From positions 22,255,001 through 22,319,000 of the forward strand of contig CM073321.1 of NCBI GenBank assembly GCA_037043015.1: a stretch of 64,000 bases of DNA, in the 5' to 3' direction. The notes under the pieces are model-generated. The model was not told the DNA's origin. It did not search any database and worked only from the letters and a program-made list of their open reading frames with translations. Source of the stretch: Bryum argenteum. Its lineage: Eukaryota > Streptophyta > Bryopsida > Bryales > Bryaceae. Below, piece after piece: positions 5,551 through 42,640 of the stretch. The number at the start of each line of letters is the position of its first letter. The first letter of the stretch is position 1. The position numbers and the translations under genes are program-made.

Positions 5551-5575
5551 AATTTAGCTCGGTTCGAGCTAATTT
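5551..5575. promoter_or_regulatory. Palindrome P1 in intron 1 of gene A
   Basis: A near-perfect inverted repeat, AATTTAGCTCG and CGAGCTAA around a short centre, ends 23 bases before the exon 2 acceptor. It is one of about 20 such sites confined to element 1. Role unknown; a binding site for the element's own ParB-like or transposase protein is a reasonable guess. Confidence 0.6.
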
Positions 5576-7011
5576 CCCTTCTGTTCTCTTTATCTCAGGT
5601 GCAGTTCGACACATGTTCTATCGAAGGATACCTGGAGCGCCTAGACGTGGAGCAGTCAAATGTACTCGCTGCCGCTGCCGAGGACAACCAGCAATACGGA
5701 ATGTTGTGGGCTCCGAAGCCGCATTCGATCGAATCCTGGTCCTTATACACGAAGGAGAATGGAATTTTCCACCTTCTCCAACAGTGTGGAACTAATCCCG
5801 CGCATCTCCCCATCTGCAACGACACATTCATAAACTGTGTCAACTATGAGAAGTCGCACCTCTTGATCACGCCTTAGGTGACCTACTTCCCTGAGTTTGT
5901 AATCTCTATAGTCTTTCCTGAAAACGAAGTGCGATACTCGCACGACACTATCAGAAATTACATGGTGGGAAAGACAGAGGCGGGGCTCGTAGACCACATT
6001 GTCACAGGGCTACTAAATGTAAGCTTTCGCAAGAAATTCATTCAGACCTACCAGCAGTATTGCATGAATATCTAGAGTGCCTTAAATGATCACGAGTTAA
6101 ACAAGGCCAAAGGTAAAGCACCCGCACAGACGGCACTTGTGGCTGCGTTTGAAGAGGGTAGCGGGTCTGGAACAGCTCGATCGGGTATGGCTTCCATTGA
6201 GGCAACTCCTTCGGCTTTGAGGAAACGCCCCAACTCAAACCCATCCCCAGTTAAGAAGGGGAAGAGATCCAAGAGTAATTTGGGGGGCAGTACTCTTACT
6301 TACTTGAATCCTACTATAAAGCACGCCTCGACCGAGAAAGATATTGATTACAAAGGAGCAAGTAAGACCTTGAAGGATTTCTGGAAAAAGAGTGAGCCTT
6401 GTTACATTTTTGGGAAGGACTCTCCTCCAGTCAATGTGTCTATCGATCTCCTCGTGAAAGCTGATGTGCGGTGTACCGTCCGGAAGCATGAGGCTGCTAG
6501 AGTTGTGCATTACAAAAACATATTGACGAACGCAATCGATTTGAACTCGAGGCAGACCATCATCATCATGCCGGTGATGGATGAGGCCCTTGAGACATGG
6601 GACTGAGATGAACTACTCGCCTCAAAGTGCAACTTCCGTGTCATCGATGGGCAGCATCATGTTCAAGCCGCGAAGGAGCTGATCGCGGAGGCTAGAATCG
6701 CAGCTGATAAGATTACCGCCTTGAAGACTTGGCGCGCACAGATTATTTGGCATTCTGACGCGAAGATGATTATGGACGTGTCCATCATGGCATGATCAAC
6801 AACGCCGGAACGTTCACACCTTCATGGGGCACGAATATCTTGGGCCCGAGGAGTGTTTGGTTGGAATACGGGTTGCCCGCAAAGTGTGGTCCGAAGCCCA
6901 AGTCCGGTCGTGAAACGATCAAACAAACTATCGCCCGACGGAAGTATGAGGTATGTCCTGCAACATAGTTTTTCTCTATCTGCAACAATGTTTTCTTAGT
7001 AGCGGTGCACC

Positions 7012-7155
7012 TTTGAGCTCGACTCAAACTAAATGTTTGCAGTGAACCATTATAACGTCTGAATCTATGGCATTTAGCTCGATCCGAGCTAAATTCAGGG
7101 TGTTTAGCTCGAATCAAGCTAAAATTGCGTAGATTTTAGCTTGAGTTGAGCTAAA
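7012..7155. promoter_or_regulatory. Four P1 palindromes packed in intron 2 of gene A
   Basis: Copies lie at 7012-7034, 7072-7094, 7103-7123 and 7134-7155. The second is nearly perfect (TTTAGCTCGATCCGAGCTAA). The intron is only about 258 bp, so over a third of it consists of these sites. Confidence 0.65.
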
Positions 7156-8567
7156 CGATCACTATCATCACTTCATGTTTTTTAATGAAGTTGCTCTTTC
7201 TTCTTCAGAATTTTGAGGATGCTATGGTGAAATGCTTCATGAGCATCAACACCAAATAACACGACAAGCTCTTAAAGCCATCGGATTTCCTCAACGAATT
7301 GGAACTCATCACTGCTTCCGAGGAAGTATACCAACTGTGGTCCAATGTTATCATTGCAAACGGGCTAGGAGAACTGATTGACCCCGACACTTGCGAGCCT
7401 TTCAACCGGGCGCAAGACTGGGCCTCGAAATCCAAGGAGACTGTCTTGTTTCGCAATACCTTCAAGTGCATGTCAGGATTGGAGGAGCACGACTTGAAGA
7501 CTCTTGCGCAACATCTTCTGAATAAGACTCCCAATTGGGACCTACCGTATTCTAAAGTGTCCTTCAAGAAGCCAAAGGTCAAATACTGAGAGTGCGTTTC
7601 TATAAAGATGTGGATGGAGAAGTGCAAGAGGAAAAAGTGTGTTCTGAGAGAGTTCCACAACATCAAGCCTGCACTCGGGTTATTTGACAGTGCCGACAAC
7701 TTTGTTGTTGACAAGTGGAATCAGTTTAAGTGCGATTACAACGTCAACCTGCAGACTATGTCCATGCTCCTTTCCGTTCCCGGGGACAACTTCTTTAGCG
7801 ACTACTGCCAGAAGAGGACAAAGAACAAGAGTTCATAAGAGATCTCCGAGTACGTTGTGGAGTTCTTTAAGAAGTTCTTGGATGTCAACGGGGATTTTTT
7901 GCTGCCAACTCCGGCTCTTTGCACAAGAATGTTTGATGTTGAGACAATCCAATTTGGGGGCTGGGATAATGGGTACAATTGGGACGATGGTAGATGCGCG
8001 TTGGGCATCATCAACCTCAGATGCGTTCCGGGCCACAGTAGTAGAGTGGACGATACGTCCAATGTCTACTTCAATGACTTCTTGAATGCTTGGAGGGACT
8101 CGGTGTTTGATCCCTCCATCAAAAATTCTGACGCCTGGCTTATTATCACGTAGACCACCGATTGGAATTGCCAGGCCCTTGTGTATTTCAACGCATTCAA
8201 GGATGAGTAAAAGTCGAAGACTGTGAAGTACGCTCCTGCGAGCAATGAGCGTTTCAACGGTATCCAAGAGGGAAAATTTGTGGACAAACACCTCATTCCG
8301 CTCTTGTTTCTTGTGAAGAGGAGCCACTAGGTAGCCGATCTTATCGAATCTATTCCGGAGACGTTCTATGCCCCAGAATTGCCCCTTTACCAAAGATCAA
8401 GAGCGTACATGGAGTTTGATTTTAGCATCAACGAGAACGATTTGCGTTTAGAGTTCTACATTCGCATACTGCGAATGTTTACCATTCCAGGCAACAGATT
8501 TCTGTCGATTATGGCAGGCACAAAGCCCATGCTTGTAGAAATAGTAAGTTCTACATTCACCTAGGCG

Positions 8568-8662
8568 TTTAGCTTGATCCTACCTAAATGTCAATTTTTT
8601 TGTCGCTTACCCATCTGCTTTTTCTGTTTTACTTGTCAATTTAGCTCGGCTCGAGCTAAAAT
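8568..8662. promoter_or_regulatory. Two P1 palindromes in intron 3 of gene A
   Basis: A degenerate copy is at 8568-8588 and a near-perfect one at 8639-8662 (TTTAGCTCGGCTCGAGCTAA). All three introns of this gene therefore carry the motif. Confidence 0.65.
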
Positions 8663-9312
8663 ACCATAGCTTCACTGTACGTTCTTCTTACTTTACTTAC
8701 TCAGTGTTTTCATTTGTCAGATGCTTAATCTTCAGACTTATATTGTCTACGAAGACGAAGATGAGTTGGAGAAATACATAGCCGTCCAGGCAAATAGTTT
8801 TAATCTTGATCCCAACGACTTTTGTGTGGACGCCTATGTAAATCCAGCTTGGGTTCATGGTCCGAAGCCTAGGTGTTCGCCTGAGGTTGTGTTTACCCGT
8901 TCTGCTGGTCGTGGGCCTGGTGAGGCATCGTCCTCTGGTGGTCATGCTCGTCGTGGTGACACATCGGCTGCTCCTGTGGCTCGTGGTGACAAACCATCAT
9001 CTGCTGGTGGAGGCAATCTATCGTTGGGTAATCGTGCTCATGGTAATCATCCATCGTCTGGTGGTAGTGGAGGCGCTCCTTCATCCGCTGTTCCCAGTCG
9101 TGGAGGCGCTCCTTCATCCGGTGGTCGTGGTCGTGGTGGGCGTGCTCGTCCTCGACCATCCAGGGAGACTTCTGGTGGGCGGGCTTTAAGCGTTGAGCCC
9201 GTTCAGAATATTGGTGACGTTAAAAGGAATTTGATGGTAAATCTGTTCGCCGTTGACGACGACAATGATGTTCCACTGGTCGATCGACGACGATCTCTGA
9301 CTCGCGGTGGTG

Positions 9313-9335
9313 ATTTAGCTCGAGTCGAGCTAAAT
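9313..9335. promoter_or_regulatory. Perfect P1 palindrome inside the coding exon of gene A
   Basis: TTAGCTCGAGTCGAGCTAA is the core of a perfect inverted repeat with 11-base arms and a one-base centre, encoding DLARVELNP in exon 4. The copy at 19165 lies in the same reading register (NLAPVDLND) in another gene. Confidence 0.75.
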
Positions 9336-9431
9336 CCCCCTACGCTCCTTGAGGAGACACTTGCTTCCAACGGCCTCCCTGATACTCTTAGCAAAGACGA
9401 TGATAATGAAGATGATAATTGTGACCTATGA

Positions 9432-9719
9432 AAGTGGTATTCTTCATACCTTTCCAAATACCTTACCTATGATATTGTAACTCTCTGAAACCCTAGAAGT
9501 TCTATATACTGTCACTCAATACTCCTCCTGATACTGCTCTCAATACTGCTCCCAATACTGCTCTCAATACTGCTCTCAATACTGCTCCCAATACTGCTCC
9601 CAACACTAACACGGAAATCTCCACACTTGAGTTTAACACCTTTTACATACAAATCCATTCATAATGTCATTGAAAAAAAATAGGAGTGGTACAAATATTT
9701 CCTGCCTTGGCAGTGCTAC
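9432..9719. other. 3' flank of gene A with a 12-bp tandem repeat
   Basis: About eight units of CAATACTGCTCC/CAATACTGCTCT run from about 9508 to 9606, roughly 75 bases after the stop codon, likely in the 3' untranslated region. GCTAC at 9715-9719 is the left target duplication of the Gypsy element. Confidence 0.6.
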
Positions 9720-9950
9720 TGTCATAGGCCAAGGCCTCGATAAGCTCGGATGTTCACTCGCTATTAATTTTATAAATAGAACTTCGGCAGTAGAGCTAAA
9801 GTATAGCCTCGGCAGTAGAGCTAAAGTATAGCCTCGGCAGTTGAGCCAAGAGGTTAGTATATAAGGGACTCTTATTCATTGTAAATCAAAGTCTTGGATC
9901 AATATATTTCTTTTGTAGTTTTTGCTTGTTTTGACAGCTAGACTCTTACA
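9720..9950 (+). repeat. 5' LTR of the Gypsy element
   Basis: 231 bp, TG...CA ends. It contains a 25-bp-class direct repeat (CTTCGGCAGTAGAGCTAAAG / CCTCGGCAGTAGAGCTAAAG) and TATATAAGG near 9857, a likely TATA box. Confidence 0.9.
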
Positions 9951-10649
9951 TAATCCAAGACTTCTCTTGATTTTCTGAAGGGCTTCATCCTCCCTTGTTT
10001 TTTCAAACGACAAAAGTAGGACATTGATTAGATTGAGGAACTTATCCACCCTCGTGGTAGTGATTGAAGATAGCCACAGAACCGGGACGCATTTGAAGGC
10101 TTTGCGAAGCCTGAAGAGTTGATTGAGAGGTGTTGCTTTTTGAGATGGAGAACGCCCAGATGATCGATGATGAGATCTTGCAGCAGCAGCAGCAGCAGGC
10201 GCAAGGAGAAATTACGGCGGAAGACTATCAACAGAGATCATGAGGTTGCGCACACACTTTCAAGCTTCTCGCCAGTCGAGAAGTTGGCTATCGAGCGATT
10301 GGTTGCACAACAATCGCAGTGGCTCCAAAGGGCCGGACAATTCACGAGTTTAGAGGTCCGTCTTCATCGCAGATGATGCCGCAATCGATGCAAAGAACAA
10401 TATGGAGGAACTGCCGTCGCATTGCGCAAGCGATTGCCGATATTTCAAAGTTTGACGGAGTCGCAAGGGCTACCCGATATGGAAGGTCGAAGCGGATAAC
10501 AAGCTTCAATTGATGGAGTCAGATTTGGTACACCTCAAGATCAAGCCGCATACTTGTTTTCGAGGATGGACGCGAAGGCGCAGATGATGGTAGTATCTTT
10601 CTACCAAAATCAACGTGGTTGCAATGCGGCGACTTTTATTCAACATCTT

Positions 10650-13600
10650 GACAAATGTTTACATCGACCCGAATGCAAAGAAATACAAGATTGAATCGGC
10701 TTCAAGCAATGAAGCAGGGTAGGGAGTCATTCGCAACATTCTTGCCCAAGTTTGAGAAGGAGCTTGGTAAGAGTCAACTTACCATGGTTCCGGATATGGT
10801 GAAGATAGGATATCTTCGCGGTGCTCTCAACTCAGAGATGCAACGCGCGATGATTAGACCTGTGACAGACATCGATTATGGTATGTTTGTCCAAGCTTTG
10901 TTGGCGGTCGGCTCTCAACTTGATTGCTTGCAATATCAGAAGGGTCGTGCAGCTCCGATCGCGACATCAAATCGCGTATGGCCAGATGGAGATGAGATGG
11001 ATTGGATGCCTACAGTCCAAATAAGCAAGCTTCGGAGACGTTTGACTTTGGAGGAACAACAACGGTGTCGCCAAGAGGGACACTGTTTTTTATGTTTGAA
11101 GCGAGGCCACCGTGCAAATGACTGTTCATCCAAGCAAGGTGAAGGCAATGAAAAGAAGAAGAAAGAGAGCGCGGACAAAACTTCGATAGTGCGCGCAGTG
11201 AGAAATAAGAGCAATGTCAAGACAGAGGAGGTCAAAGAGATGGAGAGTTGTGACTCTGATGTAGAGTCGGGAAAACGAGCAGCTTCCGGCATAAGACTCA
11301 GTCGGAGGCGTGGAGGCAGGTTGTCAAAGTTGAAGAATCTAGGAGACAGCTTAGACACGGGTGGTATGTATGTTGATGTTTTAATAAACTCAACTATATC
11401 TACTCGTGCTTTGTGTGATTCTGGATGCCAATGCTTTGCAACTGTGTCTGAGCAATTTGTTCGACGGAGAGGGTTGAATGCGTCATCTATTCAACCTAGA
11501 TCTTTGGAGCAAGTTACGACAACGAAGAAGCGGCGTATGATTTGCCAAATTGCAAATTTTATGGCCGATATTGATGGTATGGAGGAGAAGATTGTTGCCT
11601 ATGTTATTCTAGGACAGATAGATGATATAATCTTGAGAAAATGTTGGATGGAGTTACATGATGCAAGTGTTCGACCTGCTAAAGAAGAGGTTTGCATTCG
11701 AAAACCTTTCAAGATGATTGTGAAGACTCGACCGATTACGTTGGAGCCAATGCAAGAGATACGTGTATCAGTGATTCAAACTTTGCAGAGAAGCGCTGAA
11801 CCAGTAGAGGTTTTTAGTGTCAGCTTGGTTGACATCCAGAAGGCACTACAACAGAAGGTGTATAGGGACCCGGCACAACATGCTCCTGACTGGCTCATGC
11901 CAGTTATTGACGCTTTTAATCGACAAGATGCAAAGTCGTTGCCCCCGCATAGGAAAGGGATTGATCACGAGATCAATCTTATTGAAGGGAAGACTAATGA
12001 TGACATCCCTGCCATGCCGCTGTATCAGATGTCCAAGGATCAATTATTAGTTTTGCGCAAGACCCTTACGGAGTTGTTGGATAATGGATTTATTCGCGTA
12101 AGTAATTCACCTGCAGCAGCTCCGGTCATATTTGTGAAGAAACCTGGCGGAGGATTGCGATTCTGTGTTGACTATCGGCGATTGAACGAGATGAGTCGGA
12201 AGGACAGCTATCCGATTCCGCGCATTGATGAGACGTTAAGATCCATTGCTGCAGCCAAATATATCTCCAAGGTTGATGTAATCTCTGCGTTTCATCGGAT
12301 ACGTGTGAAAGAAGGTGACGAGTGGAAGACGGCGTTCAAAACACGCTTTGGCTTATATGAGTGGTTGGTCACACCGTTTGGACTGACGGGCGCACCTGCA
12401 ACTTTTCAGCGATATATTAATTGGATACTTCGCGACGAATTGGATATATGCTGCTCCGCATATATTGATGACGTGGTGATCTATAGTGATACTCAAAAAG
12501 AACATCGTGGTGCAGTTCTCAGGATCATCCGTAAGCTTGCTAACGCAGGGCTTCAACTTGATTTTGATAAGAGCGAGTTTGAAGCAGGCACTATTAAGTA
12601 TCTTGGATATTTGGTGAAGACCGGTTGGGGTTTGCAGGCTGATCCAGCAAAACTTGAGGCAATTCGTCAATGGGAGCCGCCAACAAAAGTGAAAGGAGTT
12701 CGTGGATTTTTAGGTTTCTGCAATTATTATCGACAATTCATAGATGGATATTCTAACATTGCAGAACCTCTTACTCGACTAACGCGGAAAGATCAACCTT
12801 TCCATTGGACATCGAAATGTCAACATGCCTTTGATCGATTGAAGGAGGCATTAATTCATGCGCCGGTGCTCGTTAAATGGACTCCAGGTTTGGAAACAAC
12901 CATTGAATGTGATTCCTCTGGTTATGCTGTTGGTGGCACCTTAATGCAAAAGGTGGACGGACTTTGGCATGCGGTTGCTTATTTCTCGAAGAAACACAGT
13001 CCAGCGGAGTCCAATTATCCGATTCATGACAAGGAAATGCTAGCAGTTGTACATTGCATCCGCGAGTGGCGTACATTACTTGTTGGCCAACATTTTGAAG
13101 TAAGTTCAGATCATCGCAATTTGGCTTATTTTTAGAAGAAGCAACATTTGAGCGAGAGGCAAATGCGTTGGGCCTACGAGTTGAATGATTTTGACTTTGA
13201 GATCGTGCACAAGCTTGGCAAGGATCAAGTTCAATCGGATGCACTTTCTCGTCGGGAACAGGATCTTCCCCAACACGCAGATGATGATCGAATCATGAAT
13301 CGATATCATCAGCTTTTGGACGGAGATGATGGCGCTTTGAAGGTTGTCGCTAAATCCGCATGGATCACGATGGGTGATGCGTATTTCGAGAAAGAGACTC
13401 ACTTTCTGAGTCGATAATGACCCCGCGTCCCATATGTCCATTTATTGACGCAGAGATGATTGCATTATGGGATGTTGCCCTGCAAACAAATCATCGTTAT
13501 TGGAAGATGCAAAAGGCGGTTATGGATGGTGAGCGCCGACTACCTAAAGAATGGGGCTTACCTATCACGATTAGTGAGTGTTCTGTAGATTCAGGTCATC

Positions 13601-14970
13601 GATTGCGTTGGCGTGGACGAATATGGATTCCGGCGCACGAATCTCTTCGGACGTGTTTGATCCAATCTACTCATGATTCACTACTAGCAGGACATCCAGG
13701 TCGTGAGGGTACGCGTGACTTGATTGCACGTGAATATACGTGGCCTGGGTTGACACAAGATGTTCGGAGATTTGTACGGAACTGCAACGTGTGTGGAAAA
13801 TCGAAGATTTGGCGGGAGCAGAAGCAATGGTTGCTAAAACCTTTGCCAATTCCGGCACGGATGTGGACTGAGCTCTCCATTGATTTTATTACCGGATTGG
13901 CACCAAGCAAATGATCGCAAAATATCATGGTTGTGACGCACCGTTTGTCCAAATCTATCATTCTTTGTGCCTATGAAGACAATTCGTGCACTTGATGTGG
14001 CTCACAAACATTTAGAGCAAGTTTTTCAAGATCACGGATTGCCCGCAGCATTGTGTCGGATCGCGGTAGTCAATTTGTTAGTCCGCTTTGAATGTATATG
14101 CAGATTGATGAAGATTACGCGTCGGTTGTCGACAGCTTTCCATCCGGAGACAGATGGTGCAACAGAGAGGGCGAATCAAGAGCTTGAAACATATCTTCGT
14201 ATTTTCACGACATTTGAGCAAGATTGGGCTTTTCAGTTGCCGATCGCGATGATGGCGTTGAATAATCGTGTGTCGCAGTCTATAGGTATGTCTGCATTTT
14301 TTATGACTCACGGTTATCATCATTCGGTCATGAATATTACTATACCCGAGGAGGCAGGTTCTTCGTTGTCACCGGCGGAAAAAGGACGCAAGCTTGTTGA
14401 GCACTAGCGTAATTCAAGTGAACTGGCAACAACGGCAATGGCCATTGCGCAAGAGACTCAAGAACGTCAGTCAAATACACGACGCTCGGTGGCCGAGGAT
14501 TTTCGTCCGGGTGATCGTGTGTGGTTGAAGTTGAAGAACATCAACACGTCCCGGCCAATCAAGAAGCTTGATTGGATTGCTCTTCCTTATCGTGTATTGG
14601 AGTGCGTAGGTACACATGCGGTTCGTTTGAATACACCGTCAAGTATTCATCCTGTTTTTCATGTGAGTTTAGTGAAGAAGGCAGCTGAGGATCCGTTGCC
14701 TTCCCAACTACCTCATGATAATGAGCCCGGTGTTGTTTTGAGCAATCCCGCTTTCGAGGCATCCACTAGCGAGGACGAGTATGCTGTTGAAAGAGTGTTG
14801 CAACATCGACGTCGTGGGCGCGGTTGGCAAGTACTTGTAAAGTGGACAGGATGGCCGGAGCCTACTTGGGAACCTGTTTGCCAATTACAAAATGTCATGG
14901 CCTTAGACGATTACGAGGGCTTGTTGCGCGCGTCTGGTACTGATATTCCTTGGGCACATTCTCTTGTATG
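10650..14970 (+). pseudogene. Gag-pol remnants of the Gypsy element
   Basis: Recognisable parts with rounded positions: gag zinc knuckle CFLCLKRGHRANDC near 11.09 kb; protease around LCDSGCQCFAT near 11.41 kb; reverse transcriptase 12.0-12.6 kb with YIDDVVIYS near 12.46 kb; RNase H 12.85-13.25 kb; integrase zinc-binding region near 13.68 kb with the catalytic core following; chromodomain near 14.78-14.92 kb. The order is standard for Ty3/Gypsy. The reading frame is broken in several places, so this copy is a fossil. Confidence 0.9.
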
Positions 14971-15017
14971 ACATTTGTTAATTCATCAGCACAGGAGGAG
15001 GAGGAGGAGGAGGCATT

Positions 15018-15251
15018 TGTCATGGGCCAAGGCCTCGTTGATAAGCTCGGATGTTCACTCGCTATTAATTTTATAAATAGAACTTCGGCAGTAGAGCTAA
15101 AGTATAGCCTCGGCAGTAGAGCTAAAGTATAGCCTCGGCAGTTGAGCCAAGAGGTTAGTATATAAGGGACTCTTATTCATTGTAAACCTAAGTCTTGGAT
15201 CAATATATTTCTTTTGTAGTTTTTGCTTGTTTTGACAGCTAGACTCTTACA
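15018..15251 (+). repeat. 3' LTR of the Gypsy element
   Basis: 234 bp, nearly identical to the 5' LTR, preceded by a GGAGGA-type polypurine tract (about 14995-15013) and followed by the GCTAC target duplication. Confidence 0.9.
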
Positions 15252-17285: not shown

Positions 17286-17306
17286 TTTAGCTCGGGTCGA
17301 GCTAAA
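17286..17306. promoter_or_regulatory. P1 palindrome in an intron of gene B
   Basis: TTTAGCTCGGGTCGAGCTAA lies about 33 bases after the exon donor at 17254. It ties gene B to the same palindrome family as gene A and the right end of element 1. Confidence 0.7.
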
Positions 17307-19164
17307 TTTCTGTACATGTCTGCGTGTTTGACTAGTTGATGAGCATTTGCTCATACTTTTGCTCGGCTTGTATGCTGTTTGATCTCTGTAGGAATCTTAA
17401 AGCTGGCGCTCCTTATTTTACAGGAGTCCGGCATTGAAGGCAGCGAGTAGGTCCTGCGAGTTAGTCTTTGAATTATTGGATGGTGTGCCACGTTTTGTTG
17501 ATAGTACCATTTAGTCACATCATTCAATAAAATGAGGACTTTTTATTATATCACTTGCGTCTGGACTGCGTCCGCGTCATTCTCCTCACCACCTGGCGCT
17601 AAACATCGTCATTTCTCTATCAGGTCGCGCCTATGAGTACCTTATTCCGTCTGCTTGCCACCAGAACCCCCACCGACCACCTTGTCCTGTGCGTCGGTGT
17701 GGTGGTCCGGTCCTCAATCACTCCGAGCAGTCATTTGCATGCTTCAGCATTTCACAAGGTAACACTCTTGTTTTAATATCGTCCGCAATTGTCACTTGGC
17801 GTGCTGCACGCTAGATTGTCCAAATCTTCAAGCAGGACTTTCCCTACATCCCTCGGTCAACCCCTACCGCTTGTGCCATCACTCAATGGACACCGGTCCA
17901 TGCCCAAGTGGTTGAATGTGGTGTTGGAGTTGAACGGCGTCCTTTGTTCCACTACCCCTATGTCCAAGCGCCATCTCAGTAACTTATCTTTTCGGATCCC
18001 CTACACCCTCCTGTTCTTTCCTCCGCTATCCCCACCGTAGTATACTGTCGCCCAGTACTTAACTCCTTCCTTAATGTGTTAGACCGTTTTTGCCACATCC
18101 ATGTTTGGAGTACCCTTCATCGTGAGGTTGTTCACGATCTTTGCACCTTTCTTTTCTCTAGAACTTCTGCCGTCCCTCAAATAATATTAGCTTCAAACTC
18201 TTGCGATAGACTTTTGTTGAAGAATTACTCGAAGGCCATGTATCCTGGCACAACTAATCCCATCCTACTTAAATATCCTCGTCAATGTCTCTTCACTAGA
18301 AGGGATGCTAATTTCAACGCCTTGAACTTTATTATGGTCTATAGCAATCCCGCTCCTTGTATGGTTGTTCCTCCAGTGAACACTCTCTTTCCCGATCCTT
18401 GGGTCCATTCACATCTGGGTCCACGCACAGACTCTTATCCACTAAAATAAATCCACGAGTTTTGTTTGCCGTACATTTGAGAGGTCCTCAGAACTTCCGT
18501 CAAGTTATGAGTGGTAGACCCTCTCACAATGACCTCTCCAAGGACTCCGAGTTGTACGGCATAATGTCCCGGAATCTGCCCTATGTTTGGAACCAGCTCC
18601 CTGTAAATGGGAAAACAATGTCGTGATTCCTTTCTTTTACCGTATTAATTTAAATTTTTTGTTTTACATTTTGCCTCAGTATAGCTTAATTGCAATGCTT
18701 TTGTTCTAATTGCTTGCCAGATCATTACTATTTGCTAGTCACGAATTTGCAAAGTGCAAGTTGTTCCAACTGCCAGTTGTATCATAAGAATGAGTTTTAC
18801 TGCTTGAATGTTTGTTTATATGATATTCAGGTTTTCAGCGATCGACAACAAAGTTCTTCGCTCGATGATATTTGCCCTATTGGTCACTCTACGGTTTCGG
18901 ATGCCTCTTACAATAGTGAGGGGTCCAGGACACTGTCGGAGTTGCAGCGAGGGCGGTACATATATCCTGCTCGAGAGGAAGCATCCGCTGTGGACTACAC
19001 CAAAGAGGTCCTGGATGATGATGATGATGTCGTTGATAGTTATGTCAATGTACGGAATCGAATTGTCGCGGCTTCATGTCATGACATCCCGTTGAGGACG
19101 ACAAGTACCGTGGCACGGATTAGTGACACTCCAATTCATTCCACGGACCCGGATGTACCTTGCA

Positions 19165-19187
19165 ATTTAGCTCCTGTCGACCTAAAT
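19165..19187. promoter_or_regulatory. Imperfect P1 palindrome in the last exon of gene B
   Basis: ATTTAGCTCC and GACCTAAAT arms encode NLAPVDLND, the same register as DLARVELNP in gene A (9313). The match in register suggests the site was tolerated or kept as a short peptide module. Confidence 0.5.
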
Positions 19188-27175: not shown

Positions 27176-27476
27176 CGAGACAACTCCAAAAAAGTTTGCA
27201 AATTACATCTGCCCGATATACCTATTCAGAAAGGGAGATTCCCACGCCGATAGCTTCAAGAACACGATCAAACCTGAGTACAAGCCTGCGTCGGTTCCAT
27301 ACTATTCGGAGGCTGGGTTGTTTGCTGAGATGAAATGGATATCGAAACAATTAGAACTCAGGATGGAGTTCTACATCAACCTCGTTCACAAGTACTGCCA
27401 GATTGGAGATTCAACATTAGGAATCTTCGCCGATTCAAAGCTCATGGTCGCGTTCGTTGTAAGTGCCTATCATGTA

Positions 27477-27666
27477 TTATCCCAGGACCGGAGTTAATTC
27501 TTCACAATCCTATTTTGCTTTTATAGCTCTAAGTAAAATAGCTTTGTTTTCATATTCCTATAGTTATCACCGGTCCTGAGATAACTACCCACTATCAAGA
27601 AATATATCTGTGCTTTGCCTAACTTCATAATCACCTTCATTCATATTATCCTTGACAAGGGGATAA
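27477..27666. promoter_or_regulatory. Three P3 palindromes in the intron of gene C
   Basis: TTATCCCAGGACCGGAGTT (27477-27497), TTATCACCGGTCCTGAGAT (27564-27584) and TTATCCTTGACAAGGGGAT (27646-27666) are imperfect copies of the P3 motif TATCCCCGACCCGGGGATA found perfect at 29709. The P1 motif of element 1 is not seen in gene C. Confidence 0.55.
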
Positions 27667-29420: not shown

Positions 29421-29882
29421 TTATCCACAACCCCGGGATGTTTTGGCCCCTCCTTTGAGCTTCCTTCCTGCCTCCCTCGACATCGGCGTTGCAGCCTCCC
29501 CTACGGGAGCTGCTCAGATTCATTCCCGACCCCGGAATGCTTGTATGTCAGCTGCATCCGAGCCTGTCTCATTGCAGCAGTCAGCGCTTAGGGACCCGGA
29601 TCTTGAGGATTCATAAGAGGTCATCATTGGTGGTTCTAAGGCCGCATTTGAGGAGTGCCCAACTGATATGAATAATTCAGTGGGTGTACTAGTTGCTGAC
29701 ACCGAGATTTATCCCCGACCCGGGGATAATCTTCCTCCTCCTTCACCGGTTCGTCCGGCTGAAGGTACTAGTGCGACTATTGGCGAGGTTGGCGCCAACG
29801 TAATGCTAGGGTCGTTGACCGATTTTGGGCTCGAGTTCTCCTAGTACAACGCCTTCGTGAATCATCCCCGACCCGGGGATGA
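29421..29882. promoter_or_regulatory. Four in-register P3 palindromes within an exon of gene C
   Basis: Copies lie at 29421-29441, 29519-29540, 29709-29729 (perfect, 9-base arms around ACC) and 29862-29882 (perfect). All are read in one frame as DIYPQPRD, QIHSRPRN, EIYPRPGD and NHPRPGDD. The result is a DNA palindrome and a peptide repeat at once. Confidence 0.7.
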
Positions 29883-31766
29883 TATTGACATGAGGATGCT
29901 CAAGAAGACCAGCTTCCAAGAAGACCAAGAGGTCGTGAATGACTAGCCTGCAGACAACACTGCTTGCACTATAGACGCAGAACCTCAGGAAGAAAATGTT
30001 ATTGCTGGCGATGATGAGGAGCGTTTGGATTACTTGGAGAGTCTGTCGTCAAGACAATAGCGAGAGCACACGACGGACGTTGTAAGTACTTCACCTCATG
30101 AGTCATGAATAATATTTTTCAAGACTTGCATGAATTTGATTGATCTTTGATTGGCTGCCTTTGAAAGTTTGATTCTGTTTGTTTGAATGTGGTTTATACG
30201 ACTATTATCTTCTAGAGCACATGGACGATCCCTCCGAAAGTAGATTTAATCGAAGTCGTTCACCATCCTCGTAGCGCGTCTGGTGTTGTAGATTATTTTC
30301 TGACAAATGCAGCCTTTAGGAGTCGGTTATTGACTTTGAATAGCACACATTTACATGTTGTATATCACTTTTGATGTATAATATACACACAAATTTTTCT
30401 CAACCTTTGTTATTGTCATTTGATTTTCTTGTATTTGTTTGTTAGCCCTCTCGTATAGAAATTGTTCTGCGCCCACGGGCCGTGAGAACGCCTATCAATC
30501 CCAGTGCTCTGCCCCCAATAGCTCGGATGCAATGCATTCCGTCATTGAGGATTTTTACAAATCCCACTGTCCCTGCATTCAATCAGGTATCCTCAATTTA
30601 TTGTTTTCTTTGTTTGCGAGGTAGAATCAATGACGAACTTCCCATGTATTTCACGGCCCATGTCTGCCATCGAGTCAGAGCCGGTTAAGTGGCTGAATGT
30701 TGTCATCAACATCAACGGAATCCTTTGTAAGTGTGTGCACATGCCAACACTGAAGAAGATTTTCGCCATAGCCGATCCTCGCGACCGGCTCTAGGGGTTA
30801 GACATCCCAACCAGGATACCTCTCAAGTTGGTGTAGTGCCGACCGGGGGTTTGGGGCTTCCTGGAGTCCATGCCTACTTATGTTGCGAGGATTGTGATAT
30901 ATAGGTCCATGAAGAGGTCCATAGTAGAGGGTGTTGTTGACTTTCTCTTCGGTGGACTTCCAAGGCCCTTTGAAATCCTTGGGCAAGAGTCTTGTACCTC
31001 AATGGAGGTTAGCGAAGACGCCTTCTTGGTTTCCCCAACCAACAGTAGCAATAGTATATTTTTAAAAACCTTGTGCTCTGCGGTTTTTCCCCTTTCTTGC
31101 GGACGGGTTGTTTTCAACATGGACAACACTCTCCTCATAGACGATAGTCCTGAGAAGAGTATTTGCAACCACACACGCAACTTAATCTTTGTTCAACCTT
31201 TGTCGAGGTCGAACGAGAACGATGATGTCCTGTCGACGTTACTCCCACCCTGGCTCCTTGCCCTCCAGGCCAATTGCAGGCCGGGCAATCTTCGAGCTTA
31301 TGTGGACTCCAATAGGATAGATGTCCCGCCTCAGCAGCCTTGGAAGTTACATTTTGGATGGGATCAACCGGTCTACTAGGAACTTAGGATTAACATACGA
31401 GACGCCAAATTTTCCCCACTTCACCTCCAGATGACTTCCGCGCTTTCTTTGTTTTGTAAACCACTTGTACATAGGATCTCGAATTACAGTCCTAATTTTC
31501 ATAATAAAGTTTATATGATAAATAAAACATTTTTCATTGTTCATGAATTCTCACATTATCCTTCTTCTCCTATACATTGTTTATTTGAACCAATTGTATT
31601 TTCATATTATGAGTAGCATAATTTTCGATTTGTTTGGTGTTCACATTTATTTCCTCTTGATATTTGTTATGTAGTTGTTGTTCTGCTTCGTAGTCACTCT
31701 CAAAATGCCAGGCCCATGGATATTCATGTTGCTTCCTCGTTGCTTCTGCATACGTGTACCCGTTTT

Positions 31767-31789
31767 TTTATCCCCAGACCTTGGATAAA
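31767..31789. promoter_or_regulatory. P3 palindrome in a late intron of gene C
   Basis: TTTATCCCCAGACCTTGGAT is an imperfect copy of the P3 motif, about 65 bases before a coding exon that starts near 31.85 kb. Confidence 0.5.
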
Positions 31790-34870: not shown

Positions 34871-34939
34871 CAACAAAAACTCAACGAAAGCAAAGAACCC
34901 TAGAGATCCATACTACATCCTCGGATGCTACCTCTTATA

Positions 34940-35689: not shown

Positions 35690-38500
35690 CCATTAAAATG
35701 ATGATCACATCGATCTGCCTCTAAGTCAATGTACATAAGGACACCAGATCGAAAGAGTCGGCGTGAAGAATTCGGTACAGGAGGAGTTGGAGCCGCGACG
35801 AATGCCCGAGCAACATGCTCCGCATAGGAAGGTAGAACAAGTGTGGGAGGTGGGCTATTGAAGAGATGAGCGTTTTGAGTCAAGTACCTTGAGATGCCTG
35901 CATATCTTAAAATTCATAACCAATCAATGCTCTGAATGCAGTACGGACTTTGGATTCACAAAAAGTCATTGAATCAAATTGACTACACACCAATATAAGT
36001 GAGTGGCTTCTTTGGATACGGTTCATCCAAGTCGTAGTCGTCACCAGAGGCTGTGAGGTTAAATTCCGGTATTCCGGTTCTAACTCACAAGTTGGGCCGT
36101 GGGGATGGGTGCAAACAAAACAACCTTCCAAGCAATGGACATCCTAGCAACACTCTAGCCAATCTTCTCAACCTAAACTTTGAAGTTTGGAGGTAGATTG
36201 GGTAGTGCTTTCGCACTTGGTCCCAAATTTCCGAATTTTTAACCTAAATTTATGAATTCAGCCTAAAGTCTGGGCAGCGCTTCCGCACTACCCTTACTCG
36301 GGTGCACACTAGCATCTACTCATCCCAATCAGCAAGGCAAGCAAGGCACAACATTCCAATCCAAGGCAAACATCAAGACCAAAGCATACAACACAATTTC
36401 AATTATCACAACCAATTTTTGGGCAAGGAATTTGCCATTTTCTTAGGAAAAAGCTCTCAAACTCAAACAACCTATCTAATGAGCAAACATGCATGAATAA
36501 AAGCAAGAAAAAAGAGGGGAGGAGGCTCCCTCTCTAATATCCCGTGTTAACGTAATTTCCCTCCGTATCGCTCCGTATTTCCCAACCCAGCGGTGCTGCC
36601 GACCTCAAACCAGATCAGGCCTGGCCGATCGGGCTGCCCCTCCGCCCACTCTGCTGCTGGTAGCCTTCGGACAGCCTTCGAGCTGCTACCGTCCGTTGGT
36701 GGGTGTCGATCGCAGGAGCGGCAGTCTGTCTGTTGCCTCGGTCGCTCGGCCCTCCTCCTTGTTGACTCTGATCGCCCTCTCCGTCTCAGCAGCTTGCCGG
36801 TGCTGGTACGATGATGACCTCCGCGGTTGATGTTGGTGCCGGGGAAACCGCCTTTCCGTTGCTGTCGATCCGATGTTGTACCGCGCCTCCTCCAGCGCTG
36901 AGCGCCTCGCCTTCGATCGGTGCTGCCGCATGCTGGTCTTCAGACGTGGTGCCAGTGCCAGATCCGCCGAGCTGCTTCCGTCCTCGTGCTGGTGCGGTGG
37001 TGGTTGTCGGCGCCACTACGAATCGGCTCCGCCGATCCTCTGTTTCGTCGCCGTGCTGATCGTCGAGTCGGTGAAGGCGGCCGTGCCGGTCCTGCTGCCG
37101 AACGGGCCCTCGTCGCTCCGAAAATTGGTACCTCCGCCCTGGTTTGCGAGGCTGCCCCTCCTCCGAGGTTTCACGTCCGAGGTGCTGACCCCTTCGGTGC
37201 TCCTCTTGTTGACGGCGACGCCCCGCTTCCCGTCCTGCTCGATCCGGCGCAGTGGCCGGTGTTGGGGCTGGATTGCAGCCCTTCTATCACACACCAGAAG
37301 CTCCGTTCCTACTTCCTTCGCACACCACTCTCCAAACTCACACCAAAAAAACTACTAACCCTAACTCCCACCAGATCTATCGTCACAACCCGATCAAGCA
37401 ACCATCCCTCGATTCATATGCCAAAAAATGAAAAACAAGCAACACCCAAAAAAACTAGCCTAGCAGCTCCTCTTCCGACTCACTCCCTCCCTGGCTGATC
37501 CAGGGAGGTTGAAGCAAAAAGCTTCATCCGTCCAGGTGGACGGACTTCCATCCATAGCTTTTCCTAAACAATTAGGCAAGATAAGGGCACCAAACTTCAT
37601 ACTAGGTGTTTTGTAGAAGGTAAGGGCAAAATGGGGCACCCCAACCCCTACTTAGAAATACGTAATCGCTAAACCACACTAAAAACTCGCCATTTAATAT
37701 ATTGGCGTTCATCAGAAATACCAATTTGGTATAAATTAGAGCAAGAACGGGCCGCTTGTGCCAAAACCCCCTTTGAGACCACGGGTATTCCGTGAATCCA
37801 CGAAATGAGCTAAAAAGTCTAATTAAACCATGGAAACATGACAATTACGCGCTAAACCTTGCGGGAATGCATTCCCGCTCGAGTGAACCGTTTCGCGGGT
37901 TCACAGAGGCTGATTCCCCACATGAGTATTGAAAATATGAATTTGCAAACTGCTGATAAATGAGAACTTGAAGTTTTACATGTACTAGCGCTGAAGTCAA
38001 ACACTATTCTCCCATCGTTCGTGAGGCAATTTACGAAGCACTGCAAAAACAATGGATCCTTCTCACGTGAGTTGCGCCACGGCTTCCTGTTAGTGCGGTA
38101 GGTAATGGAACCCGCGTCAGAAAAGTTACTGACCATGTCATCTTCGTCAGATATGATGGCGACTCCTGCGTATGCTTGCGCCACCTATCGTTTATTGAAA
38201 ATCACGAAGTCCTTACGAGCATAGACCTTGATGGTAAAATTATAGGTCTGCAATAAGCAATTCGAATTAAGAAAACGTAATATTGAAATGAGAGAAAGAT
38301 TAAATCAAGTGCAATATTTGAAGTATACCTCTCTTGCGGTAGCGCGAGGTTTAACCAAAGGAAGGGGGTAATAGGCCCAACACTCTCACACAATCTGGAA
38401 ATTTTAAGTATTAGCACGATTGTGCAGGATGCGGTCAATTTTGACGTCCTTGGGTGCATAATAAGGATAGTTCCAAGGTCAGTCAAATGGTATAAGGACC
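35690..38500 (-). pseudogene. Methyltransferase C-terminal fragment in element 1, split by a solo LTR
   Basis: Reading leftward: LTDLGTILIMHP (38.48 kb); VAQAYAGVAIISDEDD and REKDPLFLQCFVNCLTNDGRIVFD (38.19-37.99 kb); after the solo LTR, DDYDLDEPYPKKPLTYIG (36.04-35.98 kb) and the last exon NAHLFNSPPPTLVLPSYAEHV to HFNGASPSL (35.88-35.69 kb). Each piece matches the element 2 methyltransferase (54.4-53.3 kb). The stretch corresponding to ASVIACARSNRHLIAMERDE in element 2, the end of the AdoMet-binding region, is missing. No ParB portion lies upstream; the transposase is there instead. A broken duplicate rather than a working enzyme. Confidence 0.6.
36052..37905. mobile_element. Solo LTR, family S, copy 1 (1,854 bp)
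   Basis: Begins TGTGAGGTTAAATTCCGG and ends GTTTCGCGGGTTCACA, with a perfect 5-bp target duplication GAGGC (36047-36051, 37906-37910). The same ends bound the copy at 43933-46315, which has a different duplication, so the two inserted independently. The middle is GC-rich and has diverged strongly from copy 2; the outer parts, including GCTGATCCAGGGAGGTTG, are well conserved. Open frames inside are fortuitous. It interrupts the methyltransferase fragment, so it is younger than that duplication. Confidence 0.88.
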
Positions 38501-38579
38501 AAAAAGCAATGTCTTGAATGATCTCAAATTTTATTCCTCCTCGGCCTCAAAACGCAGAATACTTTGTTTGATGATAGTA

Positions 38580-41500
38580 ACTTGTTGCTCAGATATTGAG
38601 ATTGTTGGACGTTGCGTCATAAGTCTCTTGAACAACAGCTCGCTTCCTAAAAGGTTTAAAAAGTTGCATTTGAATACATCCCGGATTGTTGCGATCAACA
38701 TCAAAATTGGTCAAAGCCCTCGCAATCCAAGAGGGTCGAGCATCTCTATCTGCATGACGTAAAGCTCAAAAGTAGCCAGCAAAAACATCTTGACCAACGC
38801 GAAATGACTCTCTAGGTTTATCACACAATCGGCCAATAAAATAAGGATCTTGCCCATATTCCTCGCGTAATTCGCCCGTGTTAAGAAATTCTCGAGTCAA
38901 AGGTACTCGGGTTAAAGGCTAACATCCATTCCTCAAAGAAGAAACTTCCATGGGAGCCACCAATGAAACATTGATTGCACGCCAATTGCGTAAGACATAA
39001 TCGTCTCGTCGACGATTTTCTCCAGATAGGTCTTGAGCACATGAAGTTCCCCACAATTTAATGAAATCTGATATACCTTTCACAGTTTCATCATGATTCT
39101 TCATAGGAATTGACGCTAGAGGCTTCATTTCTCCTGTGGGCAATATAGGCATACCAGTAATTTCATTTTCTGTCCACAATTTTATTCCTTCATTGGTCGA
39201 TGGAAGCCACTCATTGTCAGAACATAACATCTTGTACTTCATCATAGGCCACCCATTGTCATGTTTGAAAAACTTAAATTGTTGCCCTTCGGAATGGCCA
39301 ACAAGTATTTCGTCTTCAGAAGCAATGAAATCCTTGATATATGCCTCAAAATCAGGAATCTCCTCAATCAGATGAGGAATAACTGGGAGTGCCTCAGCGT
39401 CCATGAATGACTTCATCAAAAGAGGAATTGTCAAATAGTCATTCTTTTTTAACCCCTAAACGCCCAAGGGGGGGTAAAGCTCCTAACAATTGGTAATAAT
39501 GCTGATTTTTTCAAAACTGTGTAAAAGCAATTAAAAGATGAAAATGGAAAATCCAACCGTAGGATCTTCTTTGGAGCATGGCAATTAGTATGACTGCCGA
39601 GTTGCATGCCCTTTGGAGGTATGGATTTCAAGATCCATGCAAAAAAGGAGAGAAGATCACACCACCAAAACTTTCATGAAAAATCTCTTTTGCCCACTCT
39701 CACAAATTGAGGATCAAGGTTTTTACTATTTATCCAATGAAGGAGTAGAGTAAACCCACCGAGGAGTTGAGCAAAAGAAACGGCGGATGAAAAATCGATG
39801 GAATGAAAGCGGGGTTGTGCACCAAAGACGGAGCCTCACATCCAAAATGTCGAAAAACGACACTGTGGGCGCTTAAGGTTCAATATCATACTCCAACGTC
39901 CGAAAAGAGCGTCAATATCTTCATGAGTATGTCCAACTAAAAGAAAATTGACATAAATTTCACTGAAAACGCCCATATGTACCAGAAGGTACCAAAAAGC
40001 AAAACATGAACCGACTCTTGTTATTAGAGGCGGCGTTGTCAAGTTGAATATGTAAAACCGGAAGTAAGGATTCCGTAGCTCCTCTTGACTCACTCTTAGG
40101 TAAAAGAAAGTTCAAACAACCATCTTTTCCGGTAAGCAATGCCTCAAACAAGGGATGCGTTCTAGATCCAGCAAACAATGACTTGGAATGCGATATCGGA
40201 ACTTGCTCTAGATCTTGCAGAAGCTTCTGAATAGAACCAACTGTGTGATTGCAATCACTCGGATAACTGTCAAGCCCGTAATGAGCATAACGAACATCGC
40301 AATGCGCATGAGCAATCATTCCAATCACAGCAATGGGAAGTTTCATCGGCGCATCATTAGTTTTTGTTTCGTGAGAAAACAAAGGACAAGCGGTCTTCGC
40401 ATGATCCATTTTGTCATGGATAATGCAAAGAACATCTTTTGGCCTTTGAATAGATAAAGAGCAGTTCGTATAATAATATCCACGATGTGTTTGCTAATGG
40501 TCCAAGTGGAGTTTAAGCTTCTTGATCCACATATTATCTTCAGTTGAATCTGGCACCATAGACTTGATCATAGTCTCAAGTTTATCACACGTTGCGCATC
40601 GCGCAAAATTATCTCCGAGTGCTTTCTTGAAATACTCAGAGAATATTGTTCGCCTGATCTTGTTGAGAGTGCTTTGGGCGATGAATTTCAGCCCCTACCT
40701 CTCATTGATGAGATTGATATCTGGGATCGTATCCTTCGATTTGAAGGACGAAGGCAATGGCTGTGAAACTACTTTCAGCCCATTACTGAGCATCTTGGCA
40801 TTGTGCGGCATATGATCAGCTGCGTTTTCGATTAACACCTTAAGAGTTGCAGCAGCTTGCTTCACATGAAGTCTTGGTTTCTTGGATCCGACATTCCCGT
40901 GATGTCGAGCACGTTAACCAGCAGCCGCCTCCGCTTTCTTCCTGTAGAACGTAGCAGGAGGAACTCTAGTAATATTCTGCCAAGCTTAAGCACAAATATC
41001 AATACCTTCCGTTGTAACCATCATACTCTCGTCCGTAGTTTGATGAAATCGATGATGTACATCAATCTTGAAGTGCGCCTTTAACTTAAAATCACAAGAC
41101 TCGTACATCTGCTTTCGCAAGGCCATAATCTTTTGGCGGGGGAATGGCTCAGAGCAATTCTTATTGCAGCACTTCATTCTTGCAACCATATTGACAGACT
41201 CAATCGTTAATAATCGCTCTTCTCTCCTAGTTCTCAAGATCTGAGGATGTCTTTGTCCCAAAGTATATGGGCAAACTCCTTTCCTCTTTGGTTGATCACG
41301 AGCATAAACCGCAATATTGTATTCCTCGCGATGCAAATGATCAAGTAATGACCAACCGTTGTGAATGGGGTGGCTGAGATCCCATTTCAATGGCTAGAAT
41401 ATAGTATCAAAAGGCACAAACTCTAAATCCAAGCACTTTACGATCTGAACAACTACTTGATCATCTCGCAAAGGCTCGTCATCGGAGCCCAGTACAAAAT

Positions 41501-41665
41501 CAGACCTCACACTTTGACAAATACCTCTGCAACAATGGCCCCTCAAGGATTCAATAGTGTCACAAATTTGGTTGTTCATTTGCATCTCGAAAGTCCAGGA
41601 CAATCCTTCAAATGATCCGGCAGAACGAGCTCAACAACTTTCGAATCCTTATGACCAGAAAACAA
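38580..41665 (-). pseudogene. DUF7869-type RNase H-fold transposase of element 1 (near complete, decayed)
   Basis: Reading leftward: an N-terminal region to about 41.2 kb; a Cys cluster CCNKNCSEPFPRQKIMALRK (about 41.16 kb); CATCDKLE with downstream His residues (about 40.58 kb), a probable zinc site; IHDKMDHAKT (40.42 kb); IQLDNAASNNKSR (40.04 kb); LLVGHTHEDIDALF (39.93 kb). Then FKFFKHDNGWPMMKYKMLCS and LSGENRRRDDYVLRNWRA (39.3-39.0 kb), and the C-terminal domain PYFIGRLCDKPRESFRVGQD to IQMQLFKPFRKR (38.88-38.65 kb). D-x-M, LDN and HEDID supply the acidic triad expected of a DDE/D nuclease. I recognise the family as DUF7869, common in plant genomes; the transposase role is inferred from the fold-like motifs and position beside the terminal repeat. 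It has a frame change near 40.0 kb and several stops. Confidence 0.65.
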
Positions 41666-41669
41666 TTAT

Positions 41670-42640
41670 GTTAAAGACGGAACCACCATAAATGTCAAAA
41701 CAAACAAAGTCGTAAAAATTATATTACCTCTGAAGAAATACTTTGATTGTCCCACGCACTAGTAGGACGCACTAGTCACCATGTAGAGTGGTCACTCCTC
41801 GAGTAAAGCTGATTATAAGCTCCGTGAATATGCTACACAACATTACAAAAAATTCTAATATCCATTAGCGGAAAAGAAGACGCAAACATGAAACCTCAGA
41901 ACAAGCTCAGTCATACTTAAACAATATGGAAGTAGTATTTAGCTGAAGTGGACCTAATTCCCCACCTAATTTACTAGCTTAGAAATAATCATCTGGCATT
42001 ACTATTACTATATGGATGTTACTATACAAGACAGTTTAGTTCGTACCAAGCTAAGTGAGGCTATACCGGAAATTCTATTTAGCTCGACTCGAGCTAATTG
42101 ACCCATAGAGTTCTAAAACATCTATGGCTCAATGTAGAGGAATTAAGCAGATTCGGCAGTATATTTAGATTCAGATTCAGAAGTATAAACCCCAGCATAG
42201 AAAAATGAACTAGCTTTGGACTTAGCTTGCCTCGAGCTAAATTAATTTTCAAAATCATGTGGCATTACTATAACTAAATAGAATTTACTATACAGGACAA
42301 TTTAGCTCGCATCGGGCTTAATCCCTACACATATTATGTCCCTACACAATTGTGGACTTAGGTCAACTCGAGCTAATTCCCCATATAGTTTTAGTATATC
42401 TGAAGCAAATTGCAGTAGTATGCCGCAGATTGAGTAGTATACTAAGCTCGACTCGATCTAAACCCCTAGTGTAAATTACTGGACTGAGGACTTAGCTCGA
42501 CTCGAGCTAAATCCGTGCGTATGGTCAAGAAGCAGTCGTGCATTTTAGCTTGAGTCGAGCTAAATCCCTAAGCAGATTATGACACGCTATAGACTTAGGA
42601 GGACTCGAGCTAATTGCTCAAGCGGACTGCTGAACTTCAA
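41670..42640. promoter_or_regulatory. Right subterminal zone with about a dozen P1 palindromes
   Basis: Copies of the TTAGCTCGA-n-TCGAGCTAA type lie near 41937, 42035, 42077, 42219, 42299, 42356, 42441, 42490, 42542 and 42594, at 40-100-base intervals. Those at 42077-42099 and 42490-42512 are the best preserved. The zone lies between the transposase 5' end and the ~30-bp array, so it may hold the transposase promoter as well as binding sites. No gene is visible. Confidence 0.7.

What the first reader, a model, noticed from the sequence alone, without database searches (positions are those of the whole stretch)
5551..42615. About twenty copies of a palindrome (P1) spread through element 1, mostly in introns and subterminal DNA
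TTAGCTCGAGTCGAGCTAA-type sites lie in all three introns of gene A, an intron of gene B, two exons and about a dozen times at 41.9-42.6 kb. They are not seen in element 2 or the flanks. Inference: operator or parS-like sites read by the element's ParB-like protein, or methylation targets.
Basis: partly seen in the sequence, partly recalled or inferred. Interest (0 to 1): 0.9.

Follow-up and report, generated by a model that had tools for sequence, protein, structure and literature searches.

The report
Moss transposons with family-specific palindrome sites
Large mobile DNA units in a moss-like genome carry many copies of a 21-letter mirror-image DNA word in front of their genes and inside introns of one of them, and related units carry a different word at the same spots, as if each family used its own address tag for a protein that it makes.

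Summary
The palindrome is real: 18 sites at up to 3 mismatches in the window, 0.03 expected. Its core is TTTAGCTCGASTCGAGCTAAA; 9659 sites genome-wide, reversed pattern 0. It lies in tandem arrays upstream of genes and in introns of 'gene A', whose 8 database relatives are Physcomitrium proteins. In nine gene A loci outside the window, 40 sites fall in 3,208 bp between coding matches, 1 in 17,897 bp of coding matches. Related units carry other palindromes at the same introns: P1' (L036/L037) and P4 (L039, L041; expected before fetching); a few introns have none. Element 2 has its own palindrome, P3. On contig C1 motif and gene A lineage segregate: P4 12 sites near one lineage, 0 near the other; P1' 0 and 23, most listed sites being near no scored copy. 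Best reading: dimer-binding sites for an element-encoded protein, co-evolving with it, as in VANDAL/VANC anti-silencing but in unrelated elements. Binding and function are not shown.

The parts
4674..5204 (.). upstream array of the gene A unit: ~30-bp repeats holding the variant palindrome P1' (TTTAGGTGGCTGCCACCTAAA at 4775 and weaker copies at 4901, 4996)
5247..5265 (.). P1 site, 3 mismatches, upstream of gene A
5384..5476 (+). gene A exon 1 (boundaries read by eye from GT/AG and from relatives)
5554..5572 (.). P1 site in gene A intron 1 (5477-5598)
5599..6950 (+). gene A exon 2 with the DGQHR-like motif (VIDGQHHVQAA); several in-frame stops, so a pseudogene copy
7014..7154 (.). four P1 sites (7014, 7074, 7104, 7136) in gene A intron 2 (6951-7208)
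7209..8543 (+). gene A exon 3 (in-frame stops)
8569..8659 (.). two P1 sites (8569 at 4 mismatches, 8641) in gene A intron 3 (8544-8720)
8721..9428 (+). gene A exon 4, start of the low-complexity C-terminal part
9315..9333 (.). perfect P1 site inside exon 4, read in frame as LARVELN; an open frame of L015 reads the same
9739..15251 (+). Ty3-type LTR retrotransposon nested in gene A (LTRs 9739-9950 and 15040-15251, 99% identical); not part of the system
17287..17305 (.). P1 site between the gene A C-terminal part and gene B (as in L018 at 6064)
17891..18471 (+). gene B remnant (FCP1/NIF-like HAD domain; Pfam hit was for its L018 relative)
19167..19185 (.). P1 site, 3 mismatches, in an open frame after gene B (read in frame as LAPVDLN)
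27129..27494 (+). end of exon 3 of a second, diverged gene A-like gene
27564..31788 (.). palindrome P2 (consensus TTATCCCCGANTCGGGGATAA): 29709 (1 mismatch), 29862 (3), and weak copies 27646 (4), 27564 (5), 31768 (5) in this second gene A/gene B set
30690..31376 (+). gene B-like (FCP1/NIF-like) of the second set
37972..38454 (-). degenerate methyltransferase-like remnant downstream of the D remnant
38922..40727 (-). D gene remnant (DUF7869; putative DDE-type transposase), frameshifted; most likely of a unit other than that of gene A at 5.4 kb
41939..42613 (.). P1 array upstream of the D remnant: 8 sites at <=3 mismatches, 10 at <=4
42641..42877 (.). 30-bp repeats with P1'-type palindromes (TTTAG..GGCAGCGACCTAAA)
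48976..52476 (.). palindrome P3 of element 2 (CATCGGGCGATCGCCCGATG) at 48976, 49108, 50570, 50656, 50742, 52457 (up to 5 mismatches); 334 sites genome-wide with up to 1 mismatch, control 0
51273..52358 (-). D gene (DUF7869) of element 2
53744..57911 (-). element 2 gene with a ParB-like motif (YEGNHRVTAW) and a C-terminal N6A/N4C-methyltransferase-like domain (DPPY replaced by DAPE); outer limits approximate

Best explanation
The palindromes are recognition sites for a homodimeric DNA-binding protein that the element itself encodes, most likely the gene A product (alone or joined to the FCP1-like domain). Each element family has its own site. The protein binds the arrays upstream of both divergent genes and the sites in its own introns, so that it can dress the whole unit and mark it as self, most likely to keep it transcribed in spite of host cytosine methylation (VANC-like anti-silencing), with the FCP1-like part touching the RNA polymerase II tail. 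Shown here: the sites, their arrays, their concentration between coding stretches, their change with gene A lineage at the same introns, and CpG decay. Inferred: that a protein binds, that it is gene A's, and that the outcome is anti-silencing.
For: Genome-wide enrichment over the reversed pattern: P1 9659 against 0; P1' 122+133 against 1+0; P4 94 against 0; P3 334 against 0; P5 33 against 0. Placement: 40 P1 sites in 3,208 bp between coding matches and 1 in 17,897 bp of coding matches, nine gene A loci, window row left out. Same positions, other word: L036/L037 carry P1' in introns 2-3; L039 carries P4 upstream and in introns 1, 2, 3; L041, 55% like L039, carries P4-like sites in introns 2 and 3. 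I expected both before fetching, but recorded the first only afterwards. Lineage segregation on C1: P4 12 sites at 9 copies of one lineage and 0 in the other; P1' 0 and 23 sites at 9 copies (circular-shift means 0.35-0.84, maxima 8-10). The window gene A is sister to L036/L037 (support 0.988) and carries P1 in introns with P1' upstream, an intermediate. Half-sites differ by small steps (CTCGA, GTCGA, GTGGC, GTAGC); in L036/L037 17 of 17 sites pair unlike halves. Array cores 78-95% identical, spacers 33-57%, ten arrays.
Against: No binding, chromatin or expression data. Some introns lack a site under the criteria used: intron 1 of L036 and L037 and intron 3 of L035. Most listed P4 and P1' places (34 of 46, 66 of 89) are near no scored gene A copy (only best copies are scored). 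The gene A model is too poor to show a DNA-binding fold (pLDDT 38.8), and no library finds a ParB or helix-turn-helix domain. D or the methyltransferase-like protein could be the binder. CpG decay suggests that many copies were methylated, so any protection is not general. Core conservation is raised by choosing sites on the core. The loose site criterion has a background of 50 in reversed sequence against 297. Sites within an array are not independent.
Confidence: 0.55

Rival explanations
1. Transposase sites: the palindromes are bound by the element's own transposition proteins (D, or D with gene A) to build the transpososome, like the subterminal motif repeats of CACTA/Spm elements (recalled).
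Against: Sites are kept in most gene A introns examined and in an exon; the arrays seen flank a centre of about 4-9 kb between divergent genes, not known outer ends. The true ends of the units were not found, so this is open.
Confidence: 0.2
2. parS-like nucleation: gene A or the ParB-methyltransferase is a CTP-dependent clamp that loads at the palindrome and spreads along the unit, so that many loading sites in introns make the coat continuous.
For: DGQHR-like and NHR-like motifs in the two proteins (motif names recalled); in gene A, palindromic sites lie about every 1-1.5 kb, one cluster per intron.
Against: No ParB domain by Pfam or NCBIfam; no structural model of quality.
Confidence: 0.12
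3. Self-methylation targets: the element's methyltransferase-like protein modifies its own palindromes.
For: Some units carry a gene with an N6A/N4C methyltransferase-like domain (PF01555, E 1.6e-05, just under the curated cut-off; further matches).
Against: The catalytic DPPY motif reads DAHE or DAPE in the two copies read; a 21-bp site is long for a methyltransferase (general knowledge); the decay is at CpG, the usual host mark.
Confidence: 0.06
4. RNA-level function: the palindromes act as hairpins in pre-mRNA introns.
For: Intron location in gene A; complementary double changes are twice as common as independence predicts (18 against 9.3), though 8 of the 18 are at position 6, which is also the P1-to-P1' change.
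Against: The same sites fill upstream arrays; most changes are on one arm (271 single and 72 wobble against 18 complementary and 17 other double changes); mixed half-sites in L036/L037 break the pairing.
Confidence: 0.03
5. Neutral tandem-repeat turnover: a satellite-like repeat that spreads by slippage, with no function.
For: Array periods vary (33, 35, 46, 53, 80, 104 bp).
Against: Core conserved more than spacers; sites kept in introns of genes 30-55% identical; lineage-specific word at the same places.
Confidence: 0.04

Closest known systems
VANDAL elements and VANC anti-silencing proteins of Arabidopsis (passages of PMC5735166; abstract of PMC10398659)
   Same: An element-encoded factor with short motifs that accumulate as tandem repeats in noncoding parts of the element, introns included; related elements have different motifs; motif and protein evolve together (passages, abstract).
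   Different: The VANC21 motif is a short YAGTATTAY; here it is a 21-bp palindrome. The encoded proteins differ: DUF7869, a gene A/FCP1-like protein and a ParB/methyltransferase-like protein. Anti-silencing is not tested here.
CACTA/Spm subterminal motifs read by TnpA (recalled, no paper seen)
   Same: Many short motifs near element ends and promoters read by an element protein.
   Different: Those are not long palindromes and are not known to me to fill the introns of the element's own gene.
Bacterial ParB-parS partition (recalled)
   Same: Palindromic sites in multiple copies with a DGQHR/ParB-like protein encoded nearby.
   Different: No ParB domain detected; the host is eukaryotic; sites sit inside a mobile unit in its own introns.
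KDZ (Kyakuja-Dileera-Zisupton) elements that carry TET/JBP (search listing and start of abstract only, PMC12730594)
   Same: Eukaryotic DNA transposons with an epigenetic passenger gene.
   Different: None of the frames scanned with Pfam matched TET/JBP; relation of DUF7869 to KDZ transposases not tested.

Membership tests
VANDAL/VANC system | motif arrays in noncoding regions, introns and upstream, differing between related elements | tested here: met
   some introns without a site
VANDAL/VANC system | MULE-type VANA transposase and VANC protein (recalled) | tested here: not met
   Pfam scans of the frames given found reverse transcriptase domains of the nested Ty3 element, DUF7869, NIF and a sub-threshold N6_N4_Mtase, nothing MULE-like; the 120 listed relatives of D all bear PF25273. 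Not every frame of a unit was scanned. Not filed as a VANDAL
VANDAL/VANC system | loss of DNA methylation caused in trans by the protein | not testable with these tools
   no methylation data
ParB-parS | ParB N-terminal CTPase domain and HTH | tested here: inconclusive
   no Pfam/NCBIfam hit; motif-level likeness only; model unusable
ParB-parS | palindromic sites in several copies near the gene | tested here: met
   that they are loading sites is not tested
DDE transposase (D, DUF7869) | RNase H-like fold with Asp/Glu triad | tested here: inconclusive
N6A/N4C DNA methyltransferase | PF01555 domain | tested here: inconclusive
   E 1.6e-05, 25.4 bits against a cut-off of 26.7
N6A/N4C DNA methyltransferase | catalytic DPPY-type motif | tested here: not met
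   DAHE in L031 and DAPE in the window, judged by eye in these two copies only
FCP1/NIF phosphatase (gene B) | PF03031 domain | tested here: met
   L018 gene B E 9.1e-13, 48.6 bits over cut-off 21.8; four of eight Physcomitrium proteins listed (P0002-P0005) carry it with gene A in one chain; DLNG in place of the usual DxD motif (usual motif recalled)

The most novel reading that the evidence does not exclude
This would be a second, independent origin of VANC-like sequence-specific anti-silencing, with a prokaryote-like loading mechanism.
Probability: 0.2. Interest if true: 0.9.

Novelty: new variant of a known kind. Interest (0 to 1): 0.76.

Why it matters
Sequence-specific anti-silencing by transposons is known to me mainly from VANDALs (recalled). 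Here an unrelated class of elements in a moss-like plant shows the same anatomy with sites that are long, palindromic, easy to score and present in tens to thousands of copies per family, with visible intermediates (the window itself is one). That makes the co-evolution of a DNA-binding protein with its site directly testable by swapping half-sites, and the palindromes give a simple bar code for sorting these elements into families.

Tried and rejected
Thought unlikely: RNA hairpin selection (with a two-fold excess of complementary double changes that speaks for it). No sign of a prokaryotic source: the exact 21-mer is in 1 bacterial contig and no viral contig. Rejected: the inverted repeats at 4.67 and 42.97 kb as the ends of one 38-kb element, because gene A has a divergent D outside the window and 50 of the 58 gene A places with a listed D within 40 kb have it upstream and opposite (37 of 95 have none listed; both lists are capped). 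Against that rule: gene A of L015 has a D on each side (L014 and L016). Led nowhere: AlphaFold of gene A; ParB by Pfam/NCBIfam; Foldseek of D (none at E<=0.001). Parts of D outside residues 173-527 are barely tested. Paper searches for such elements: DUF7869, 0 papers; transposon+ParB+methyltransferase+eukaryot+moss, 4, none on topic by title; three of Physcomitri, transposon, ParB, FCP1, 2, none on topic by title; transposable element+palindrom+intron+moss+giant, 16, of which 10 listed, none on topic by title; Physcomitrium DNA transposons, PMC7466625, passages seen, no occurrence of palindrom or FCP1; Ceratodon sex chromosome with transposons, 1, off topic. TnpA/Spm search gave 0.
Full report
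OBSERVATION. The window lies in a 258.8-Mb genome of 25 contigs (C1:22255001-22319000). Genome-wide it occurs 9659 times at up to 1 mismatch; the pattern read backwards occurs 0 times. A 21-bp word, TTTAGCTCGASTCGAGCTAAA, is by far the commonest near-perfect palindrome in 20 sampled 10-kb pieces plus the window (half-site TTTAGCTCGA 128 times, next 7; AT repeats aside; 17 of the 20 pieces were chosen in or beside hits of the pattern, 3 were not).

WHAT CARRIES IT. Gene A is a four-exon gene, a pseudogene in the window with several in-frame stops. Better copies are at L015 and L018. Its relatives by search are Physcomitrium patens proteins (1 hit with L015 gene A; 8 with P0001 as query, itself included), four of which continue into an FCP1/NIF domain; gene B of the window matches that domain's gene in L018 (PF03031). 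So the genome is moss-like; the DUF7869 search also lists Ceratodon purpureus proteins. Gene A is a large family: 97 matches, with 95 of 1045 first-look candidates scored. D (DUF7869) gave 143 matches, with 142 of 1740 candidates scored.

THE UNIT. Sampled loci showed <-D, array, gap, array, A-> several times, so I looked left of the window for a D. L038 holds an open D frame of 746 codons on the minus strand with a P1 array before it. I then paired 95 listed gene A places with 142 listed D places. Of the 58 gene A places with a listed D within 40 kb, 50 have it upstream and in the opposite orientation, 37 of these 50 at 8-15 kb; 8 of the 58 do not fit, and 37 of 95 have no listed D within 40 kb. 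On C1, 32 of 79 gene A places have a D within 15 kb, against a mean of 6.1 and a maximum of 12 for random places. Gene A of L015 has a D on each side, so the other arrangement also occurs. The common arrangement is <-D, array, a centre of about 4-9 kb, array, A->.

WHERE THE SITES SIT. In nine gene A loci outside the window, P1 sites (up to 4 mismatches) number 40 in 3,208 bp between coding matches (introns and any unaligned coding) and 1 in 17,897 bp of coding matches; I left the window row out because its span there wrongly joined two genes. Two window sites in open frames, 9315 and 19167, are read in frame as LARVELN and LAPVDLN. Arrays lie upstream of A and of D with periods from about 33 to 104 bp. 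In ten arrays core identity is 78-95% and spacer identity 33-57% (the core figure is raised by selection on the core, but mismatch counts fall steeply: 87, 71, 35, 20, 11, 11 sites for 0-5).

OTHER FAMILIES, SAME PLACES. L035 (50-60% like the L015 group) has P1 in introns 1 and 2 and variants in an upstream array, none in the intron 3 stretch examined. L036 and L037 (gene A 50-56% like L015) have in introns 2 and 3 the variant P1' (TTTAGGT...ACCTAAA), mixed with P1-like halves in intron 2, P1'-type repeats upstream, and no site in intron 1. The loose criterion gives 297 sites and 50 in reversed sequence. In the gene A tree the window is the sister of L036/L037 (support 0.988) and carries P1 in its introns with P1' in its upstream array, an intermediate state. 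Half-sites differ by small steps, and 17 of 17 sites in L036/L037 pair unlike halves. P4 (TTATCGTCGGSCCGACGATAA) was first seen as an array in L011, with 94 sites genome-wide, control 0, in clusters some 5-7 kb apart. I expected a diverged gene A to the right of the second cluster near C1:231.5 kb with P4 in its introns; this was in my working and was written down only afterwards. L039 shows it: P4 at 161 upstream (2 mismatches), 511 (0) and 584 (6) in intron 1, 2099 (2) in intron 2, 3515 (2) and 3644 (5) in intron 3, in a gene 27-29% identical to the P1-type and Physcomitrium proteins. For a copy 55% like L039 I expected a palindrome in introns 2 and 3, P4-like or new (not recorded beforehand); L041 has P4-like sites at 289 (5 mismatches) in intron 2 and at 1721 (3) and 1783 (2) in intron 3. 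On contig C1, of 46 listed P4 places 12 lie around 9 of the 49 gene A places at least 44% like L039 and 0 around the other 56; of 89 listed P1' places, 0 and 23 (9 places) (circular-shift means 0.35-0.84, maxima 8-10). Offsets from the exon 3 start cluster at introns 2 and 3 (about -70 to -150, +1180 to +1370, +1490 to +1505), at -1.65 to -2.65 kb and near +2.25 kb. The remaining listed places (34 of 46 and 66 of 89) are not near a scored copy; only the best copies are scored by the tool, and arrays lie on the D side too.

ELEMENT 2 has palindrome P3 (6 sites; 334 genome-wide, control 0). L026, one of the three pieces not chosen by the pattern, has P5 (10 sites; 33 genome-wide, control 0) upstream of a gene like that of element 2; in the other two, L027 and L028, no such family was seen. 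That gene carries a ParB-like motif and a methyltransferase-like domain (PF01555, E 1.6e-05, 25.4 bits against a cut-off of 26.7) whose DPPY reads DAHE or DAPE. P3 was not found inside that gene in the window; its sites lie next to and beyond the D gene. So 'sites in the gene's own introns' is shown for gene A only.

LIMITS. 

Noticed in passing
G000 contig C1: C1 (44 of 259 Mb) holds 79 of 95 listed gene A places and 112 of 142 listed D places. It may be a sex chromosome: D relatives include Ceratodon purpureus proteins with KC19_VG locus tags on a 110-Mb contig.
   Followed up: no
window 9739-15251: Ty3-type LTR retrotransposon with LTRs 99% identical nested in gene A.
   Followed up: partly
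window 24476-27221 and 58223-59644: Tandem repeats of about 392 bp and about 500 bp, many holding a related GCGTSGACGC-type palindrome.
   Followed up: no
window 27129-32756: A second, diverged gene A/gene B set with its own palindrome P2 in the last intron and beyond.
   Followed up: partly
L026 4007-6284: A 10-kb piece not chosen by the pattern has ten palindromes of yet another kind (P5) upstream of a ParB/methyltransferase-like gene.
   Followed up: partly
L038 4910-5036 and window 4672-4796: Inverted repeat of about 125 bp (74%) on the two inner edges of the arrays that face the centre between D and gene A.
   Followed up: no
L018 6515-7321; P0002: The FCP1-like domain reads DLNG where DxD is usual (recalled), so its phosphatase activity is in doubt.
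   Followed up: no
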